In this document: positions 26,460-63,336 of the stretch, one piece after another
How the letters are laid out: each line of letters opens with the position of its first letter
Numbering within the stretch: the stretch's first letter is position 1
From: Hyphomicrobiales bacterium
Lineage (GTDB): Bacteria > Pseudomonadota > Alphaproteobacteria > Rhizobiales > Methylopilaceae
DNA length: 64,000 bases
Reading direction: 5' to 3'
Assembly: GCA_022842205.1 (NCBI GenBank)
Contig: JALHQA010000004.1
Span: forward strand, 114,501-178,500
Program-made: the position numbers and the translations under genes
The notes under the pieces: model-generated
The model's input: only the letters and a program-made list of their open reading frames with translations
What the model was told of the DNA's origin: nothing
Databases searched by the model: none

Positions 26460-27863
26460 GTGATCGACATCAATATCGCCCAGTTCCTCTATCTCGCGGC
26501 TGGCATTCTCTTCATCCTCGCGCTGCGCGGCCTGTCGCATCCGACGACCTCGCGCCGGGGCAATTTCTTCGGCATGGCCGGCATGGGCATCGCGATCGTC
26601 ACGACGCTCGTGATCTCGCCGCCATCCGATGCGTTCGGCTGGCTGCTCGTTGTCGGCGGTCTCGCCATCGGCGGCGTCGTCGGCGCGGTGATCGCCAAGC
26701 GCATTGCCATGACCGACATGCCGCAGCTCGTCGCGGCCTTCCACTCGCTGGTCGGTCTCGCGGCCGTGCTCGTGGCGGCCGGCGCGCTGTACGCACCGGA
26801 AGCCTTCGGCATCGGCGCGGTCGGTGAGATCTCCGGCGCGAGCCTCGTCGAAATGTCGCTCGGCGTCGCCATCGGCGCCATGACCTTCACCGGTTCGATC
26901 ATCGCGTTCCTGAAGCTCGCGGCCATGATGTCGGGCGCCCCGATCATCCTGCCGGCGCGCCATCTTCTGAACATCGCGCTCGCCGGCGCGCTTGTCGTGC
27001 TGATCGGCGTGTTCGTCGCGACCGAGAGCCACGCGATCTTCTGGGTCATCACGGTTCTGGCGCTGGTGCTCGGCATCACGCTCATCATCCCGATCGGCGG
27101 CGCGGACATGCCCGTCGTCGTGTCGATGCTGAACTCCTATTCGGGCTGGGCCGCGGCCGGCATCGGCTTCACGCTCGGCAATCTAGCGCTCATCATCACC
27201 GGCGCGCTGGTCGGCTCGTCGGGTGCGATCCTCAGCTACATCATGTGCAAGGGCATGAACCGGAGCTTCTTCTCCGTCATCCTCGGCGGCTTCGGCGGCG
27301 AGGTCGCGGCGGCCGGCGGACATGTCGAGACGCGCCCTGTGAAGCAGGGCTCGGCGGACGACGCGGCCTTCATCATGAAGAACGCCGAGAAGGTCATCAT
27401 CGTGCCCGGCTACGGCATGGCGGTCGCGCAGGCGCAGCACGCCACGCGCGAAATGGCCGACCTTCTGAAGAAGAACGGCGTCGAGGTGAAATACGCCATT
27501 CATCCGGTGGCGGGCCGCATGCCCGGCCACATGAACGTGCTGCTCGCCGAGGCGAACGTTCCCTATGATGAAGTGTTCGAGCTTGAGGACATCAACGCCG
27601 AATTCTCGCAGGCCGACGTTGCCTTCGTCATCGGCGCCAACGACGTGACGAACCCGGTCGCCAAGACCGATCCGAAATCGTCGATCTACGGCATGCCGAT
27701 CCTCGACGTCGAAAAGGCGAAGACGGTTCTGTTCATCAAGCGCGGCATGGGCTCCGGCTATGCCGGCGTCGAGAACGAACTCTTCTTCCGCCCGAACACG
27801 ATGATGCTGTTCGGCGACGCCAAGAAGATGACGGATTCGATCGTCAAGGGCCTGGCTGACTGA
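26460..27863 (+). CDS. pntB: NAD(P) transhydrogenase beta subunit
   Basis: This 467-residue inner-membrane protein couples proton entry to hydride transfer from NADH to NADP+. About nine N-terminal membrane helices (residues 3-265) are followed by the NADP-binding domain III (about 285-467) with IVPGYGMAVAQAQHA and FVIGANDVTNPVA. The start codon is GTG at 26460. It closes the four-gene unit subunit IV-pntA-pntAB-pntB and is followed by a strong terminator. Confidence 0.95.
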   Translation: MIDINIAQFLYLAAGILFILALRGLSHPTTSRRGNFFGMAGMGIAIVTTLVISPPSDAFGWLLVVGGLAIGGVVGAVIAKRIAMTDMPQLVAAFHSLVGLAAVLVAAGALYAPEAFGIGAVGEISGASLVEMSLGVAIGAMTFTGSIIAFLKLAAMMSGAPIILPARHLLNIALAGALVVLIGVFVATESHAIFWVITVLALVLGITLIIPIGGADMPVVVSMLNSYSGWAAAGIGFTLGNLALIITGALVGSSGAILSYIMCKGMNRSFFSVILGGFGGEVAAAGGHVETRPVKQGSADDAAFIMKNAEKVIIVPGYGMAVAQAQHATREMADLLKKNGVEVKYAIHPVAGRMPGHMNVLLAEANVPYDEVFELEDINAEFSQADVAFVIGANDVTNPVAKTDPKSSIYGMPILDVEKAKTVLFIKRGMGSGYAGVENELFFRPNTMMLFGDAKKMTDSIVKGLAD

Positions 27864-27884
27864 CGATCGTCCTTACGGACAATG

Positions 27885-27916
27885 AAAAGGGGCGCCCGCG
27901 AGGCGCCCTTTTTTGC
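27885..27916 (+). terminator. Rho-independent terminator after pntB
   Basis: A GC-rich stem (GGGCGCC ... GGCGCCC) ends in six T residues, 20 bp after the pntB stop. Confidence 0.85.
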
Positions 27917-27979
27917 TTTTGCCGTCCTTGCCCGGCTACGGCCCGCGAGCTAGCCTATGGCGGCTGAGAGAAGCGATTG

Positions 27980-28687
27980 ATGCGGCTATTCAAGAAACGA
28001 TCACCCTCGAACCGCACGGCTGCGGTGGCTGCGGCTGTGCAGCAGGCCGCCGGCGACGCGCGATTCGTTGTTGCGGAGGAGTCCACGGTTCGCACCGCCC
28101 GCTACGAGCGCGATGGCCAACCGGATTTCGAAACATACAGACGCATTCAGAACGAAGGCAACCGGCTGAAAATCGGCTTCGTCTATGCCAAGAAGCGGAT
28201 GATTGCGACAATTGCCTCTCACGCTCGCAAGCATCTGGAAGTGAAAAGCATTCTATGCCACGGCACGCGCAACGGGGCGGAGCTCAGGTGGTTTGGCGAG
28301 GAGTTTCCCGAAGCCGAAATCCTGGGTACCGACATCGCGGAAAGCGCAACGCAGTTCCCCAACACGATCCAGTGGGATTTCCATGATTTCCGCGATGATT
28401 GGCGGGACCGCTGGAATGTCATCTATTCGAATTCATGGGATCACGCGATGGAACCGGAGCGTGCTTTCAAGGCATGGGCTGACAGCCTTGCTCCCGGCGG
28501 GATCCTTTATCTGGAACATGGCCGGGCTCACGATGTGGGCGGAACGGATGGTCTCGATCTGTTCGGAGCCACGCGGGAAGCGCTGGTGGAGATCGTAAGA
28601 AAATCGACAGGTCTTGTTCCGCTCGGGTCTATCGGCAAGCTTCACCGCACGCGCCGGACACTGCCGTTCCGGAAGAGCGCAGAATAG
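27980..28687 (+). CDS. Class I SAM-dependent methyltransferase-like protein
   Basis: This 235-residue protein has a Rossmann methyltransferase core. A poorly conserved motif I region is in VKSILCHGTRNGAEL, motif II is EILGTDIAESATQFP with the acidic residue at the strand end, and the LAPGGILYLEH segment is typical of motif V/VI. The glycine motif is degenerate (CHGTRNGAE), so the protein may bind another ligand. The ATG at 27980 is preferred over the in-frame TTG one codon upstream. The gene has its own terminator. The substrate is unknown. Confidence 0.72.
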   Translation: MRLFKKRSPSNRTAAVAAAVQQAAGDARFVVAEESTVRTARYERDGQPDFETYRRIQNEGNRLKIGFVYAKKRMIATIASHARKHLEVKSILCHGTRNGAELRWFGEEFPEAEILGTDIAESATQFPNTIQWDFHDFRDDWRDRWNVIYSNSWDHAMEPERAFKAWADSLAPGGILYLEHGRAHDVGGTDGLDLFGATREALVEIVRKSTGLVPLGSIGKLHRTRRTLPFRKSAE

Positions 28688-52247: not shown

Positions 52248-52532
52248 TCATATTGTCTCGCAGGACGTCGCACGAATGAGGATTTCGTCCTGCTCAAAAC
52301 GGGCTTCGAGGTCGGCCCGCAGCTTCCGCCACCACTCGCGATCGAGTTCCCGCGTCATGACCTCGATGATGCCTATGGGCTCTTTTTCCAGCGCCTGGCC
52401 GTGCCACAGCCCGTCCGCCGGCGTGCGTACATGGGCCGTCGCGCCGCCAAACTCAAGCGCCAGCCTTTCGATCAGGGCCTCGATGTCGGTGCCCTGCGCG
52501 CTCATCGGAACGAACAGTTCGACGAGGAACAC
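52248..52532 (-). CDS. Small protein of unknown function
   Basis: This 94-residue protein begins MFLVELFVPMSAQGTDIEAL and contains ALIERLALEFGGATAHVRTP, then an amphipathic helix (DREWWRKLRADLEARFEQDEIL). It looks like a compact alpha/beta protein. No domain is recognised. It lies 8 bp after the 55-residue membrane protein gene on the same strand, in the same small-gene operon. Confidence 0.65.
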   Translation of the reverse strand: MFLVELFVPMSAQGTDIEALIERLALEFGGATAHVRTPADGLWHGQALEKEPIGIIEVMTRELDREWWRKLRADLEARFEQDEILIRATSCETI

Positions 52533-52540
52533 AATCGCGC

Positions 52541-52708
52541 CTATTTCTTCCCCGGGGGCACGCCTCGCGTGCCGTCCTCGGTCGGCACGCCGTAGTACGT
52601 CGACGGCGTGTTTCCAAAATCAACGTCCGCGGAATCCCTGAAAAACCATGAGCCGACAACGATGAAAAGCCCGATGGCGGCAACGGCGATGATGGCGTAG
52701 CGGCTCAC
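52541..52708 (-). CDS. Single-TM microprotein, 55 residues
   Basis: The reading frame starts with GTG at 52708 (GGGAGA lies 7 bp upstream) and ends with TAG at 52541. It encodes (M)SRYAIIAVAAIGLFIVVGSW, one membrane helix, followed by a polar tail ending GVPPGKK. The start overlaps the stop of the 57-residue gene by 4 bp, which supports translation. The function is unknown. Confidence 0.6.
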   Translation of the reverse strand: MSRYAIIAVAAIGLFIVVGSWFFRDSADVDFGNTPSTYYGVPTEDGTRGVPPGKK

Positions 52709-52878
52709 TTACGATCTCCCCGATCGCCTTGGCCCGGCCTTACCCTGGTGTCGGCGTCGCGCCTGCGGTCCTGGGACAGCGAACGACCGACATCGTCGGA
52801 CTCCTTGAAGCGTCCCTCGCTGTCGCGGCGGACGTACCTCTTGTCGCTGCCAGTATCGATCAATTCGCGTTTTGTCAT
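52705..52878 (-). CDS. Small charged protein, 57 residues
   Basis: This protein begins MTKRELIDTGSDKRYVRRDS and is followed by SEGRFKESDDVGRSLSQDRR. It is very polar and probably disordered. Closely similar small proteins are common in Rhizobiales; their function is unknown. A GGAGG ribosome-binding site precedes the ATG. It is the first gene of a run of at least three small genes on the minus strand. Confidence 0.7.
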   Translation of the reverse strand: MTKRELIDTGSDKRYVRRDSEGRFKESDDVGRSLSQDRRRDADTRVRPGQGDRGDRK

Positions 52879-52928
52879 GTATGTGCCTCCTGACCGGATC
52901 GCGCAGGCGCGCAGCCTGACGAGTTGAA

Positions 52929-53450
52929 TCATACTTTCGCGGCCTTGCCCGCCTGAGTAAGTTCAAGGAAGCGGAGAGTGACCTTCTCTACATTGTCTTC
53001 GATCCAGCTTGCCATTGCGATTTCTTCGCCGAGCGTCTGCTCCAGCAGTTTTGTGTGCGTGCTGCCGAAGCCGCTGGCGTCGGACAGAGTGATGAGAGAT
53101 TTGTAGGATGCGATTTCGAAATTCTCGAAGGCGTAGTTGGCGAACGTGTTCTTGAGAATTTCGTCGCCGGCGACGCTATGGCCCAGCGCGGCGAGATTAC
53201 CCATAAGCGATCCGCCCAGATCCTTCATCTTCGAGGGGCCTTCGTCGAAATCGCCCAGAATCTCGTGAAGACGCTCAAGCTGAACCTCGGTTTCCTTCCG
53301 GTGCGCCTTGAGCCGCGTGAGCACGTCCGGATAACTCTCGAGCCGGTCGATCTGGCGCTGCATGATCGAAAGGGCCTCGTTCTCCAGCGCATGCGCATTG
53401 CGAAGCCCGGTGAGATAAAGTTCTACAGCCTGGGTTGTTTCGTGCGCCAT
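52929..53450 (-). CDS. DUF892 / YciF-like ferritin-fold protein
   Basis: This 173-residue protein has the DUF892 (YciE/YciF) ferritin-like layout: ELYLTGLRNAHALENEALS, RLKAHRKETEVQLERLHEIL, and NYAFENFEIASYKSLITL, with Glu and His residues that could form a di-iron site. Such proteins are typically induced by stress. An EcfG-type promoter lies about 34 bp upstream. The start at 53450 has a GGAGG site. Confidence 0.88.
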   Translation of the reverse strand: MAHETTQAVELYLTGLRNAHALENEALSIMQRQIDRLESYPDVLTRLKAHRKETEVQLERLHEILGDFDEGPSKMKDLGGSLMGNLAALGHSVAGDEILKNTFANYAFENFEIASYKSLITLSDASGFGSTHTKLLEQTLGEEIAMASWIEDNVEKVTLRFLELTQAGKAAKV

Positions 53451-59285: not shown

Positions 59286-59405
59286 TGGGGCGCTCCTCTC
59301 CCCTAGTGGACGCGGGGTGAGGGGTTCGTGGAGGAACGCCGTTCCGCATCCCGCATTTGCCGCATAGGATCGCCGCCACCAACGCCGGAAAGCGGAGTAT
59401 CGCGC

Positions 59406-59879
59406 ATGCCCGACATCAAGCCCTTCCTGTGGTATTCGGAAAAGGCGGAGGAGGCGGCGCGCTTCTATTGCTCCGTCATCCCCAATTCGTCGTTCACCAG
59501 CGCGACCGACATGCCGGCCGAAAGCCCCGGCGGCCCGTCCGGCTCGGTGAAGATCGTCGAGTTCGTGCTGGCCGGCGTGCCCTTCATGGCGATGGGCACG
59601 AAGCAGATGGACCCGTTCAATCACGCCATCTCGCTGATGGTCGAAGTCGACACGCAGGAAGAGCTGGATCGCATCTGGAACGCCCTGCTCGACGGCGGCG
59701 CGCCGGAAGCCTGCGGCTGGCTGAAGGACCGCTACGGCGTGTCCTGGCAGATCACGCCGCGCCGCCTCAACGAGATGATGCGCGATCCCGACCGCGCGGC
59801 GGCAAAGCGCGCGGCGGAAGCGATGATGACGATGGTGAAGCTGGATATCGCGGAATTGGAGAAGGCGTTTGGGGGGTGA
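59406..59879 (+). CDS. VOC-superfamily protein (PhnB/3-demethylubiquinone-methyltransferase-like)
   Basis: This 157-residue protein begins MPDIKPFLWYSEKAEEAARF and has GVPFMAMGTKQMDPFNHAIS and the DGGAPEACGWLKDRYGVSWQ region, typical of the PhnB-like VOC family. The start at 59406 is preferred over the longer frame. These proteins bind small molecules or metals; the substrate is unknown. It is the last ordinary high-GC gene before the AT-richer islet. Confidence 0.88.
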   Translation: MPDIKPFLWYSEKAEEAARFYCSVIPNSSFTSATDMPAESPGGPSGSVKIVEFVLAGVPFMAMGTKQMDPFNHAISLMVEVDTQEELDRIWNALLDGGAPEACGWLKDRYGVSWQITPRRLNEMMRDPDRAAAKRAAEAMMTMVKLDIAELEKAFGG

Positions 59880-60000
59880 GCGATGACCGCTGTGTTGCCG
59901 GAATTGTTGCTGACCCAATTTCTCCCTAACACACCGTATCGCAATTCCGGGTTGACGCTAAATGATCGTCGTAGCCTCCTTACTTTTAGGGGGGCACATT

Positions 60001-61140
60001 ATGCAAAATACGTTCGCCGACTGGGCATCAACCAATATCGTCGGGAATCAGTTGGAGGTTCCCGGTCCTGACCCAAAAGATCGGGCATCCGAATTAGCAG
60101 GGGTTCAACGGCAACGATGGCAAGCAATCGTGCAAAAACTACAGCATGTGATGGATAATGATACTCGCCGCAATTTTGAGGCGGCAATTCAAGGGATAAA
60201 CCCGAGTATCGGCCGTAATCAGACTACGGCAACGCTAGGGTCTCAACTACCGATTATTATAAAAGAAGTTCCAAGTGAGGTCATCGGTGCCGACGAGCTA
60301 TATCTATCTTTGATAGCTGTAGCTACGAAGCTGTTCCCAAGAAACATGGATATTGTCAGCCACCAACTGCGAATGGCTATCGCTGTTGAAAGATATGGAG
60401 AGTTGCGTCGCCAGAGCGAATTGAAGGAAATGTTCGACGCAATTAGATCGGGCATAGATACGTCAGCCCGTGATCACATCGAAAAACTAATAAATAGAAG
60501 TGAAAATGTAGTTGCAGAACTAAATAAGGAACTGCAGCACGCGCGCAACTTTGCATCACAGGCATCATCTGCGACGGCAGCCACCCTTCAAAAAGCCGCA
60601 GAAGAAAATCAGCAGATCCTTCAGAAGCACACAAACGAAACTCTAGAGAAGATCGCCGCTCTTCGAGAGGCGCAAGAAGAGCTCGTGGAGATTAAGCCTA
60701 TCGTCAAACTCTGGTCTGACAAGGCTCAACAGCACCAGGTTTACTTCTACGCTGGTGCAGCGGTATTCTGCGTCGTACTTGCTGTATCCGTAAAAGTAAC
60801 GTATGTACACGGGGCAACATACGCTAAGTCCATATCAGAAGCTGTGTCCGGGCAAGAAATATTGGGAACGGCTTTAATCGCTGCTCCAGTGCTAGCGATA
60901 GCATGGGTACTTCGGTTGGTTAGCCGATTCACGCTCACCAACCTCTCCCTTTGGGATGATGCTCAACAGCGAAAGGCAACTGCCGAAACTTACATAGGGC
61001 TGATAGGTGAGAAAAAAGGTTTGATCACTAAAGGAGAGCGTGGGCTCGCACTCAATGCTTTGTTCCGAGCGGGACCAAATGCCCGTCAAGATGACGTGGA
61101 GCCGCCAAACTTTCTCGAGCTCATAAAGGGCAAGGAGTAA
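60001..61140 (+). CDS. DUF6161-type membrane protein with coiled coil
   Basis: This 379-residue protein is encoded by DNA with visibly lower GC than its neighbours. A soluble helical N-terminal half (about residues 1-150) is followed by a long coiled coil (about 150-245, ENVVAELNKELQHARNFASQ). Two membrane helices (about 250-275 and 290-310) follow, and the C-terminal block LVSRFTLTNLSLWDDAQQRK with ETYIGLIGEK and ALNALFRAG resembles DUF6161. The family appears in variable genome regions and has no known function. AGGGGGG before the ATG at 60001 fixes the start. Confidence 0.72.
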   Translation: MQNTFADWASTNIVGNQLEVPGPDPKDRASELAGVQRQRWQAIVQKLQHVMDNDTRRNFEAAIQGINPSIGRNQTTATLGSQLPIIIKEVPSEVIGADELYLSLIAVATKLFPRNMDIVSHQLRMAIAVERYGELRRQSELKEMFDAIRSGIDTSARDHIEKLINRSENVVAELNKELQHARNFASQASSATAATLQKAAEENQQILQKHTNETLEKIAALREAQEELVEIKPIVKLWSDKAQQHQVYFYAGAAVFCVVLAVSVKVTYVHGATYAKSISEAVSGQEILGTALIAAPVLAIAWVLRLVSRFTLTNLSLWDDAQQRKATAETYIGLIGEKKGLITKGERGLALNALFRAGPNARQDDVEPPNFLELIKGKE

Positions 61141-61148
61141 GTTCGTCG

Positions 61149-61199
61149 CTTACTTTGCCGCCTTGGCGCGGCCTCTCGATCTTCAGATTGGTTCGCCCC
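61149..61199 (-). pseudogene. Relic of the 3' end of fba
   Basis: About 50 bp match the 3' end of the intact aldolase gene at 63632-63680 (minus strand) at roughly 83% by eye. The central GCCGCCTTGGCGCGGCC is exact. One inserted base breaks the frame, so it would encode the terminal GRAKAA-stop only after a shift. It lies 8 bp after the DUF6161 stop and just before the end of the DUF429-like gene. Confidence 0.6.
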
Positions 61200-61218
61200 A
61201 GCGTGGCGCAGGACCCAG

Positions 61219-62130
61219 TCATCGACCAAGTATCCAGCCTTCCCATAGTGACTCTCGATAATCCTCTGTGGTCGCCGGTCGCCGCCCATCGGCAACATCG
61301 ATCATCTTGAAGAGGCCGGTCAGAGCATCGAACGCGTCTTCGCCATTCTTGTGAGGTCCGAAGCCGCCGTGGATCGAACGGGAAGTCGCTTCGCCGAGCC
61401 TGACTTTGTTTCGATCAGCCCATGCAAAAATCTTCGTGGCCTTGGCGCTACGATCCGCTTGCCTGCGTTTGCTCTCTCTTACGTGAAACGGAATTCCGAT
61501 CAGCCGAGCCGCGAGAGCAGGGTAAGTCTCTGCAATAGTCACCCCGCCTTTACTACCCAAACTCTCAAGTGTGCCATCGAACGGCCAGACCATACCGCCG
61601 CGCTCCATCGCGGGGCGGACCACCTCCTGCCATCCCGCGAGCGCCCCACGTCCAACCTGATTGCCGCCTAACGTCCAAAATAACGAGCAGGCGTCCTGTC
61701 CGCCGGTGTTTTTCTCGCAGACGCGCAAAAGATTACCGAAGGTCGCGGATTGGAGCCCCACGACCAGATGATCTCGTTTGGAGCCCTTGCGGCTGCTTCT
61801 CGGATAAAATGGCCGATAGACCGAGATTTCGTCCGGGGTCGATGCGATCTCAAAGAAATGTCGCCAGTCTTCGTGGTGACCAAACGCGTGCAACGCCTCT
61901 GGAAACGAGCGGAATCCGGATTTACGTCCGTAATGATCCGGAAGCCCAATTGGAAAATCGAAACCAAGAAGTACGGACGGCAATGAAAACGCTCTGTTGA
62001 GCAAAGCATCGGACGGCCCCGCCAAGTCGGGTCCGGTGACGAGCCATTCTTCTTTGGAACGCACGGCGGTCGCAATGTAGCGCTTGTCCGCTTTCACACC
62101 CCAGTCCGCGTGAATGAGCGTTTCAAACAA
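61219..62130 (-). CDS. DUF429-like (RNase-H-fold) protein
   Basis: This 303-residue protein resembles DUF429: an N-terminal Asp in LIHADWGVKADKRYIATAVR (core HADWGVK), LLGFDFPIGLPDHYG near residue 55, AETYPALAARLIG near 205, and GEDAFDALTGLFKMID near the C-terminus. The spaced acidic residues could form an RNase-H-like metal site. Its DNA is less GC-rich than the surrounding genes. It is convergent with the DUF6161 gene. The function is unknown; nuclease or regulatory roles are inference. Confidence 0.68.
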   Translation of the reverse strand: MFETLIHADWGVKADKRYIATAVRSKEEWLVTGPDLAGPSDALLNRAFSLPSVLLGFDFPIGLPDHYGRKSGFRSFPEALHAFGHHEDWRHFFEIASTPDEISVYRPFYPRSSRKGSKRDHLVVGLQSATFGNLLRVCEKNTGGQDACSLFWTLGGNQVGRGALAGWQEVVRPAMERGGMVWPFDGTLESLGSKGGVTIAETYPALAARLIGIPFHVRESKRRQADRSAKATKIFAWADRNKVRLGEATSRSIHGGFGPHKNGEDAFDALTGLFKMIDVADGRRPATTEDYRESLWEGWILGR

Positions 62131-62406
62131 CTGGGGGCTCCGTGGCTTGGCGCGCTTGAGCGAACTTGCCTATTTGCAGCACCCCTCATTTAAACTGCAA
62201 CACCTCGTTAACCACCTCGGCGCATCATCGGCATAAGCAGGGGTCGAAGCGGCGTACTGCAGCTCTGCCCATATCCGCCACGGATTTGCGTGGTGCTTCA
62301 CTCCCCTGCGGCCATGGCAACGCATTGCCCCGAGCATTCGCGCGCGGCGGCGCACCGCCATTGGCTTGGCGCGGCCATCGCGCCGGCGAGTTTCCTGCGA
62401 CCTCCC

Positions 62407-63336
62407 TCAGAACGACACGTTGAGCCGGGCCGTCGCCGTGTGCCAGTCGAACACCGTGTCCGCGCCCGCCGGCGAGAAGCTGCGTTCGCCGAGCCGCGTA
62501 TATTCATATTCCGCGCCGATGGAGAGATTGCGCGTCAGCGCGTATTCGAAGCCGAAGCCGGCGATGAGCCCGATCTGTATGGACGATGTCTCTTCGAGCG
62601 CGCCGTGGATCACGAGCGTCGAGCCGTCGCCCGTGCCGCCGGGGCCGATGGCGGTGATGGTCTCCAAGGTGAGCGACTCGTAGCTTTCGTCCAGCTTTGC
62701 CGCCGTCACGCCCGCCGTGGCGTAGACGAAGGCCGAGTCGGTCGCGAGGCCGGCGCGGCCCTTGGCGGCGGCGCTCCACGGCACTTCGGCCGTCCCCACG
62801 CCCACCGCGCGGTATTCGTAGAAATCGTCATTGGCGGTGAACGTGTAGTCGCTGATGGCGCGCGCCTCGCTCGTCACGTCCTCGTTGCGGGCCTGAAGTT
62901 CGACGCCGACGACGAAGGGGCCGGATTGCCATGTCTGGCCGATCTGCGCGCCGAAGCTTTCGCCCCTCAGCTCGCCGGAAAACGTATCGCCGCCGAATTC
63001 GTCTCCGAGGAAGGGATATTCCGGCTCGCCGCGCGTGATGCCGCCCTGCAGGCCGATATAGGTCCGGCTCCAGCGGGGCGCGGTCTCGGCGGCAAGGCTC
63101 GCGGTGTAGAGCGTCTCGTCCGCCTCATGTGCCGGGGAGGCGATGCCCGCCGCCGGCGCGGGCGCGGCCGTGGCGGCGACGGCCCGGCCTTCGAGCGCGG
63201 CAACCCGGCGCTTCAGCGCCGCGTTCTCCTGCTCCAGCTTTTCGAGGCGGGCGAGCACCGCGTCGAGGCTGGCCTGCGCCGGCGCTAGCGGCAGCACGAA
63301 AAACAGAACCGTGACTATCAGACCGAATATGCGCAT
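62407..63336 (-). CDS. Outer-membrane beta-barrel protein with N-terminal coiled coil
   Basis: This 309-residue protein has a signal peptide (residues 1-22), a short heptad coiled coil (LARLEKLEQENAALKRRVAA), a Pro/Ala linker and an eight-stranded barrel of the Omp25/RopB kind (about residues 85-309). The last strand (TATARLNVSF) ends in the aromatic residue required for BAM insertion. The coiled coil suggests trimerisation or cell-wall contact. About 276 bp without a recognisable gene lie between it and the DUF429-like gene. Confidence 0.85.
   Translation of the reverse strand: MRIFGLIVTVLFFVLPLAPAQASLDAVLARLEKLEQENAALKRRVAALEGRAVAATAAPAPAAGIASPAHEADETLYTASLAAETAPRWSRTYIGLQGGITRGEPEYPFLGDEFGGDTFSGELRGESFGAQIGQTWQSGPFVVGVELQARNEDVTSEARAISDYTFTANDDFYEYRAVGVGTAEVPWSAAAKGRAGLATDSAFVYATAGVTAAKLDESYESLTLETITAIGPGGTGDGSTLVIHGALEETSSIQIGLIAGFGFEYALTRNLSIGAEYEYTRLGERSFSPAGADTVFDWHTATARLNVSF

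What the first reader, a model, noticed from the sequence alone, without database searches (positions are those of the whole stretch)
59880..62200. AT-richer islet with a DUF6161-type membrane protein and a DUF429-like RNase-H-fold protein
Between the VOC gene and the outer-membrane protein gene the base composition and codon use change. The islet holds only a coiled-coil membrane protein of the DUF6161 type and a convergent protein with DUF429-like spaced acids. Neither has a metabolic context. A membrane-anchored coiled-coil protein next to a nuclease-fold protein is the sort of pair seen in defence loci, though I cannot show that here.
Basis: partly seen in the sequence, partly recalled or inferred. 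Interest (0 to 1): 0.65.

Follow-up and report, generated by a model that had tools for sequence, protein, structure and literature searches.

The report
Distant relative of phage-defence protein AbiZ
A lone, probably horizontally acquired membrane-protein gene of a family catalogued as 'unknown function' turns out to belong to the same family as AbiZ, a dairy-bacterium protein that makes virus-infected cells burst too early; its neighbour, a nuclease-like gene, is probably unrelated to it.

Summary
GC falls from 0.645 (window mean) to 0.486 in the DUF6161 gene and 0.569 in the DUF429-like gene; codon bias is 0.71 and 0.47, against at most 0.47 in 37 other genes. It is not one islet: a congener has the DUF429-like gene beside the same convergent neighbour, but no DUF6161 gene. 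In 397 genomes of the order the two occur in 15 and 6 genomes and meet only in this one. The DUF429-like model resembles RuvC-type resolvases.

The DUF6161 protein is a distant AbiZ relative. A Lactococcus plasmid protein near AbiA and a restriction system is annotated DUF6161 and matches PADLOC's AbiZ model at E 1.5e-167. Profile comparison of the two groups gives E 6.9e-19, and 6.9e-13 on C-terminal tails alone (best of 30 shuffles 0.011). All 24 members examined keep two hydrophobic segments and a 68-84-residue tail. One phage contig carries the gene antisense between portal and head-protease genes. Most likely role: premature-lysis phage defence. No phage activity was tested.

The parts
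60001..61140 (+). DUF6161/AbiZ-family membrane protein (first ATG of the open frame is 59962; the ATG at 60001 has a Shine-Dalgarno-like GGGGGG at 59989-59994)
   Evidence: Pfam PF19658 E 8.5e-9; PADLOC AbiZ E 1.1e-7; profile-profile of its group with the AbiZ group E 6.9e-19
60439..60714 (+). coiled-coil-like region ending at the invariant Trp (residue 251 of the 392-aa frame)
   Evidence: long helix 166-295 in the model; W251 in 24 of 24 sequences
60751..60807 (+). first hydrophobic segment (residues 264-282)
   Evidence: Kyte-Doolittle scan
60856..60912 (+). second hydrophobic segment (residues 299-317)
   Evidence: Kyte-Doolittle scan
60913..61137 (+). conserved C-terminal tail (pattern DA..R.....TY..L, then R...L.ALFR)
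   Evidence: mean pairwise identity 0.31 against 0.15 for the N-terminal part, 24 sequences; tail-only profile match to the AbiZ group E 6.9e-13
61219..62130 (-). DUF429-like RNase-H/RuvC-fold protein; separate, older gene, convergent with the DUF6161 gene
   Evidence: copy in the same neighbourhood of a congener, L040
59406..59879 (+). VOC-type gene just upstream, native composition (GC 0.648); by composition not part of the acquired DNA

Best explanation
The islet is a single, probably horizontally acquired gene, DUF6161, lying next to an older, unrelated DUF429-like gene. Its product is a distant member of the AbiZ family: a divergent N-terminal part and coiled coil, two closely spaced membrane helices and a conserved C-terminal tail. 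Most likely it works as AbiZ is reported to work. It sits quietly in the inner membrane, responds to a late product of an infecting phage, and together with the phage's holin it permeabilises the membrane ahead of time, so the cell lyses before virions are finished. Shown here: composition, family membership, architecture by hydropathy, patchy distribution, carriage of relatives on phage and plasmid DNA. Inferred: acquisition by transfer, topology, trigger, membrane effect, defence phenotype.
For: The AbiZ model hits the window protein at E 1.1e-7 and 12 of 14 aligned DUF6161 proteins at E up to 0.01, best 1e-16. The match does not rest on the coil: the membrane-plus-tail half alone gives E 1e-3, the N-terminal half no AbiZ hit; the same half of two phage-borne relatives gives 7.6e-9 and 1.1e-8. 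The Lactococcus plasmid protein annotated DUF6161, near an AbiA protein, an LlaJI-family endonuclease and an integrase, scores 551 bits over nearly the whole AbiZ model. hhalign of the two groups: E 6.9e-19; tails only 6.9e-13, best of 30 column shuffles 0.011. Two hydrophobic segments plus a 68-84-residue tail in 24 of 24 members. Patchy: found in 15 of 397 genomes of the order, 1 of 4 in the genus. The gene is AT-richer than its locus in 20 of 21 other loci, the last being equal to two decimals, and in 3 of 3 Firmicutes plasmid loci. Phage contig L085: DUF6161 antisense between portal and head-protease genes. Published AbiZ phenotype: earlier lysis, cooperation with holin (PMC6356687 and PMC7182436, passages).
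Against: The window protein is a weak member: 29.6 bits to the AbiZ model, over positions 173-372 of 398 only, and 20% identity over 183 columns to the Lactococcus protein. With only the window protein and its nearest relative as query, profile comparison falls to probability 89.7, E 1.9e-6. That nearest relative, on contig L080, matches neither DUF6161 nor AbiZ on its own. No mobile-element or defence gene was recognised right beside the gene in the window. The families shown for neighbours of 13 relatives (25 of 127) are mostly ordinary. AbiZ is known to me only from Gram-positive cells; an envelope with an outer membrane may behave differently. No close homologue exists to test for selection.
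Confidence: 0.55

Rival explanations
1. Defence by another route: the protein is a membrane-anchored sensor-effector of the same family, but it kills or arrests the cell by itself (membrane depolarisation without holin), or blocks DNA entry as a superinfection-exclusion protein when carried by a prophage.
For: Same architecture and phage carriage. The N-terminal part is hardly conserved (mean pairwise identity 0.15 in 24 sequences), as expected if triggers differ between members.
Against: The characterised family member, AbiZ, is reported to act late, through lysis timing.
Confidence: 0.25
2. The DUF6161 and DUF429 genes form a two-component defence pair (membrane protein plus nuclease).
For: They are adjacent and both AT-richer than the rest.
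Against: They meet in 1 of 397 genomes, which is this one. A congener has DUF429 beside the same convergent neighbour gene without DUF6161. Convergent orientation excludes an operon. Composition differs (0.486 and 0.569).
Confidence: 0.03
3. The gene has nothing to do with phages: an accessory membrane protein (for example for envelope stress or gene transfer) with a shared membrane-tail module.
For: Around 13 cellular copies the Pfam families shown (25 of 127) are mostly ordinary. Similarity to AbiZ is confined to the C-terminal half.
Against: Patchy distribution, AT-richness and carriage inside a phage head operon are typical of phage-encoded cargo; the family's characterised member is an Abi protein.
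Confidence: 0.17

Closest known systems
AbiZ of Lactococcus (PADLOC PDLC02354; here WP_032398699.1 on plasmid pUCCL629C)
   Same: Homologous C-terminal module (two hydrophobic segments and tail), similar length and helix spacing.
   Different: Only 20% identity over the aligned part, N-terminal part not matched, an alphaproteobacterial chromosome-type contig instead of a plasmid, solitary, no phenotype known.
Pfam DUF6161 (PF19658)
   Same: Window protein scores above the curated cut-off.
   Different: Pfam gives no function; no paper in the held library contains the name.
DUF429 (PF04250) and the RuvC-like clade of the RNase-H superfamily
   Same: Fold by model comparison; acids D9, D58, E201, D265 and D268 identical in five of five aligned sequences.
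   Different: Score below Pfam's cut-off; no activity known.

Membership tests
DUF6161 (PF19658) | whole-protein score above curated cut-off | tested here: met
   35.6 against 27 bits
AbiZ family | match to the PADLOC AbiZ profile | tested here: inconclusive
   E 1.1e-7, 29.6 bits, but only positions 173-372 of 398; PADLOC's own score and coverage rules for calling AbiZ were not available
AbiZ family | homology by profile comparison with a group holding a full-length AbiZ match | tested here: met
   hhalign of its 14-member group E 6.9e-19; tails only 6.9e-13 against best shuffle 0.011; weaker, 1.9e-6, with only the window protein and L080
AbiZ family | two C-terminal transmembrane helices (recalled as reported for AbiZ) | tested here: met
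   hydropathy of the window protein and of the Lactococcus protein
AbiZ family | same N-terminal region | tested here: not met
   N-terminal half gives no AbiZ match at E up to 0.1; the BLASTP match to the Lactococcus protein starts at residue 214. It varies in the DUF6161 members as well, so I do not take it as defining the wider family
AbiZ family | premature lysis of infected cells, cooperation with holin | not testable with these tools
   needs phage and holin assays
DUF429 (PF04250) | whole-protein score above curated cut-off | tested here: not met
   19.6 against 23 bits; hence called DUF429-like
RNase-H-like superfamily, RuvC-like clade | fold and conserved acidic residues | tested here: met
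   VIA Z 9.5 Ydc2, 8.8 chloroplast resolvase, 8.7 RuvC, on a moderate-confidence model; acids identical in five sequences; Foldseek E-values alone not significant
Two-gene defence system | recurrent co-occurrence of the two families | tested here: not met
   1 of 397 genomes, the window's own (single-protein searches, so remote members may be missed)

The most novel reading that the evidence does not exclude
DUF6161 as a whole is a broad, unrecognised AbiZ-type family in which a fast-changing N-terminal part senses the head proteins of competing phages, and a conserved membrane-plus-tail module triggers early lysis. Two facts suggest the trigger: published AbiZ-escape phages carry missense changes in the major capsid protein (PMC10984412, passage), and a phage-borne DUF6161 gene sits inside a head operon close to the capsid genes.
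Probability: 0.2. Interest if true: 0.7.

Novelty: new member of a known kind. Interest (0 to 1): 0.45.

Why it matters
A Pfam family without a function can be tied to a defence protein with a published phenotype, by homology of its membrane-tail module. That makes a family found here in Alphaproteobacteria, on Firmicutes and proteobacterial plasmids and on phage contigs directly testable for early-lysis defence in Gram-negative cells, and names the residues to mutate. For this window it turns a vague 'defence pair' into one candidate gene and removes the neighbour from the hypothesis.

Tried and rejected
DUF6161-DUF429 pair: rejected on co-occurrence and synteny. Coiled-coil artefact behind the AbiZ match: rejected as the sole cause, because the N-terminal and coil half gives no AbiZ hit and the tails alone match; the coil does add to the full-length score (29.6 bits whole, 16.5 bits for the membrane-tail half). 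The weak LeoBC, ZorA and LmuB matches lie mostly in the coil and were set aside. Fold search with the DUF6161 model gave nothing useful: best Foldseek E 0.32, a long-helix model of mean pLDDT 65. Foldseek for the DUF429 model had no match at E 0.001 or better; the VIA second look over Foldseek's own candidates gave the RuvC-type rows. Small ORF 59883-60071 upstream of DUF6161: no Pfam match and no convincing relative in the loci then held (best E 0.07 outside the window's own genome). Flanking repeats that would mark an insertion: only short or weak ones. tRNA in the window: none. Promoter and terminator scan: nothing beyond chance. Defence-island enrichment: 104 neighbours scanned, no clear signal, no baseline run; 25 of 58 matching families are shown by the tool. 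DUF6161 relatives in named phage records: none by tblastn with three queries. A named-genome scan for DUF6161 gave 82 pattern matches and no relative. Of 80 named transglutaminase neighbourhoods, 1 holds the DUF429-like gene (the congener's own record, L103) and none DUF6161; many of those loci are short or distant, so the absence says little.

Rows dropped: the DUF6161 hit in the 64%-complete genome G389 (L038) was not aligned, so 13 of the 14 hits outside the window's genome went into A1. L082, a near copy of L081, was left out, of alignment A10 and of neighbour set A6, and so was one 100-aa ORF of L081 from A6. Viral locus L098 and the Acinetobacter plasmid locus L102 were not analysed. L093-L097 repeat earlier contigs. 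Gene calls around loci are mechanical and the greedy caller missed the HTH ORF beside the congener's DUF429 gene (it is).

Full report
What is there. Between the VOC-type gene ending at 59879 and the outer-membrane-type ORF starting at 62407 lie two convergent genes. The left one, 59962-61140 (+), has GC 0.486; the right one, 61219-62130 (-), has 0.569; the window mean is 0.645, and the 20 lowest of the 1-kb windows (step 100) all start at 59400-61300. Against 62 other mechanically called genes the GC z-scores are -6.0 and -2.9. Codon bias against those genes is 0.709 for the left gene and 0.468 for the right, where 37 other genes of at least 200 aa have mean 0.281 and maximum 0.474. The AT-rich stretch starts right behind the VOC stop codon. 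No tRNA, no long flanking repeat and no recognised mobile-element gene marks its ends.

The two genes are not one islet. In the congener G002 (contig C15, which by length and place is LNEV01000015.1, 'Rhizobiales bacterium Ga0077545') a DUF429-like gene lies in the same neighbourhood, with relatives of the window's L,D-transpeptidase-like, HTH, transglutaminase-like and aldolase-like genes around it. There it faces the same small HTH-protein gene convergently, with 27 bases between the two listed ORFs and neither VOC nor DUF6161 in between. The order of the transglutaminase-like gene differs between the two genomes, so the region has also been rearranged. The congener's copy has GC 0.664. The two copies are 54% identical and group together in a seven-sequence tree with 90/96 support; against simple vertical descent, the congener's copy is slightly closer in plain identity (56%) to a Microvirga plasmid copy. 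In G001 the transglutaminase-like and aldolase-like genes lie near each other with one small ORF between, and neither DUF6161 nor DUF429 is found in that genome. DUF6161 is absent from G001-G003. In the order, searched with the window proteins, DUF6161 occurs in 15 of 397 genomes and the DUF429-like protein in 6 of 397; only the window's genome has both. A pair that works together should recur; this one does not. Single-protein searches may miss remote members.

The DUF429-like protein. It scores just under Pfam's cut-off. The AlphaFold model (mean pLDDT 69.8, pTM 0.76, five sequences) aligns with Holliday-junction resolvases: Ydc2 Z 9.5 (rmsd 4.0, 153 residues), chloroplast resolvase 8.8, poxvirus resolvase and RuvC 8.7, then phage and herpesvirus terminase nucleases. 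The tool's own note says best Z values of 7 to 8 are typical of models without a clear match, and Foldseek alone had no match at E 0.001, so this is moderate support; it agrees with the published placement of DUF429 in the clade of RuvC-like resolvases (PMC3985635, abstract and passages). Residues D9, D58, E201, D265 and D268 are identical in five of five sequences. By my mechanical ORF calls and reading, relatives in G301 and G267 lie near integrase-like ORFs, and the distant one in G032 lies among phage-tail-like ORFs; PADLOC was silent on the four of these ORFs tested. The Microvirga plasmid relative lies downstream of ORFs that match PADLOC PDC-S02 and REase_II models. It may be a nuclease in its own right; nothing here links it to DUF6161.

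The DUF6161 protein is an AbiZ relative. PADLOC's AbiZ model matches it at E 1.1e-7 and matches 12 of 14 aligned DUF6161 proteins at E up to 0.01, best 1e-16. Of seven phage-contig relatives scanned, five match AbiZ and six match Pfam DUF6161; L080, the nearest relative (41% in its best segment), matches neither, and L087 matches DUF6161 only. Because coiled coils give false matches, I split the protein: the membrane-plus-tail half alone matches AbiZ (E 1e-3), the rest does not; the same halves of two phage-borne relatives match at 7.6e-9 and 1.1e-8. To reach AbiZ itself I walked from phage-contig protein L085 to a Sutcliffiella plasmid protein and from it to a Lactococcus plasmid protein. The latter, WP_032398699.1 on pUCCL629C, is annotated DUF6161 and sits near an integrase, an AbiA-family protein, an LlaJI-family endonuclease with an AAA ATPase, and an IS6-type transposase. 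That layout fits what I recall of pTR2030, where AbiZ was found; that paper is not held. The protein scores 551 bits, E 1.5e-167, over positions 1-397 of 398 of the AbiZ model. In the same search 6 of 7 records matched (L080's contig did not), the window's gene was the only match in its genome (E 3.9e-7), and 1 of 14 control genomes rang (Methanocaldococcus jannaschii). Profile-profile comparison of the 14 DUF6161 proteins (the window's and 13 of its order) with the three Firmicutes ones gives probability 99.1 and E 6.9e-19 over 207 columns. With only the tails behind the second helix it is 97.8 and 6.9e-13, while the best of 30 column-shuffled controls reached 3.9 and 0.011. With only the window protein and L080 as query it is weaker: 89.7, 1.9e-6. 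Direct BLASTP gives 35 bits and 20% identity over 183 columns. These E-values are for single comparisons.

Anatomy. Every one of 24 family members examined, the window's included, has two hydrophobic segments near the C-terminus and a tail of 68-84 residues (21, 3); two have extra N-terminal segments (L050, L055), and in two the second segment was listed as two overlapping windows (L081, L086). In a 24-sequence alignment the mean pairwise identity is 0.15 in the N-terminal part, 0.13 in the coil, 0.18 in the hairpin and 0.31 in the tail; W251 and F368 are in 24 of 24, D333, A334 and R337 in 22 of 24. A variable front and a constant membrane-tail end suggest a sensor part that changes and an effector part that does not; this is inference. 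The structural model has low confidence outside the long helices, and its fold search is uninformative.

Carriage. In 20 of 21 other loci the DUF6161 gene is AT-richer than its surroundings, and in the last it is equal (L081 and L082 are near copies); the same holds in 3 of 3 Firmicutes plasmid loci. On phage contig L085 it lies antisense between the portal and the head-maturation-protease genes, with head-decoration, major-head and terminase genes next in line. The Pfam tally over 50 neighbours of seven phage-contig loci shows two each of portal type 3, DUF2213 and head decoration, which fits the related contig L084 (64% identical protein) holding the same module; L084 was not annotated gene by gene. 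On L080 a neighbour is a DNA polymerase beta-clamp gene (by reading and Pfam). On plasmid pC6.5c the gene directly follows a tyrosine recombinase, itself behind a VapBC pair. Around 13 cellular copies, 104 neighbours gave few PADLOC matches, among them at least one methyltransferase and one MzaA-like protein, and the Pfam families shown are mostly ordinary (25 of 127). There is thus good evidence that the family rides on mobile DNA, but no evidence of enrichment in defence islands.

How it most likely works. [quoted passage not shown] By homology of the effector-like module I infer the same for the window protein: idle in the inner membrane, triggered late in infection, then early permeabilisation. 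The membrane topology, trigger and effect are inferred. Family membership by homology of this module I hold at about 0.95; an anti-phage role at about 0.8 over all routes; the AbiZ-type early-lysis route at 0.55.

Novelty. No paper in the held library contains 'DUF6161'. Searches combining AbiZ with other terms were seen as listings, with passages of five of the papers; none of what I saw describes Gram-negative AbiZ relatives, and papers outside that library were not searched. PADLOC's profile would lead others to the same link, so I rate it as a new, distant member of a known kind.

Noticed in passing
window 61219-62130 and L040 11723-12628: The DUF429-like gene has GC 0.569 in the window but 0.664 in its congener copy in the same neighbourhood, and is only 54% identical where flanking genes are about 64-91%; fast evolution or replacement by a foreign copy, not resolved.
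   Followed up: partly
L085 3596-4789 (IMGVR_UViG_3300011515_000002): DUF6161 gene antisense inside a phage head operon, between portal and head-maturation protease genes: looks like a cargo gene.
   Followed up: yes
window 59883-60071 (+): 62-aa ORF starting three bases behind the VOC stop codon and overlapping the start of DUF6161; no convincing relative found in the loci then held.
   Followed up: partly
L088 4390-8924 (Microvirga plasmid pMVF16-5): DUF429 relative downstream of a DUF3578 protein and an AAA-like ORF that match PADLOC PDC-S02 and REase_II models: by my reading an McrBC-like neighbourhood.
   Followed up: partly
neighbours of the phage-contig DUF6161 loci (alignment A6): One neighbour matches the anti-CBASS protein Acb1 (E 1.2e-41) and one the NPP1 family (E 1.6e-58); which locus holds them was not looked up.
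   Followed up: no
window 62407-63336 (-): Outer-membrane-type protein with nine matching places in this genome; the closest congener copy (58%) lies on another contig of G002.
   Followed up: no
window 52500-53250 and 27400-28100: Two further, weaker GC dips (about 0.58 and 0.59) in the window.
   Followed up: no
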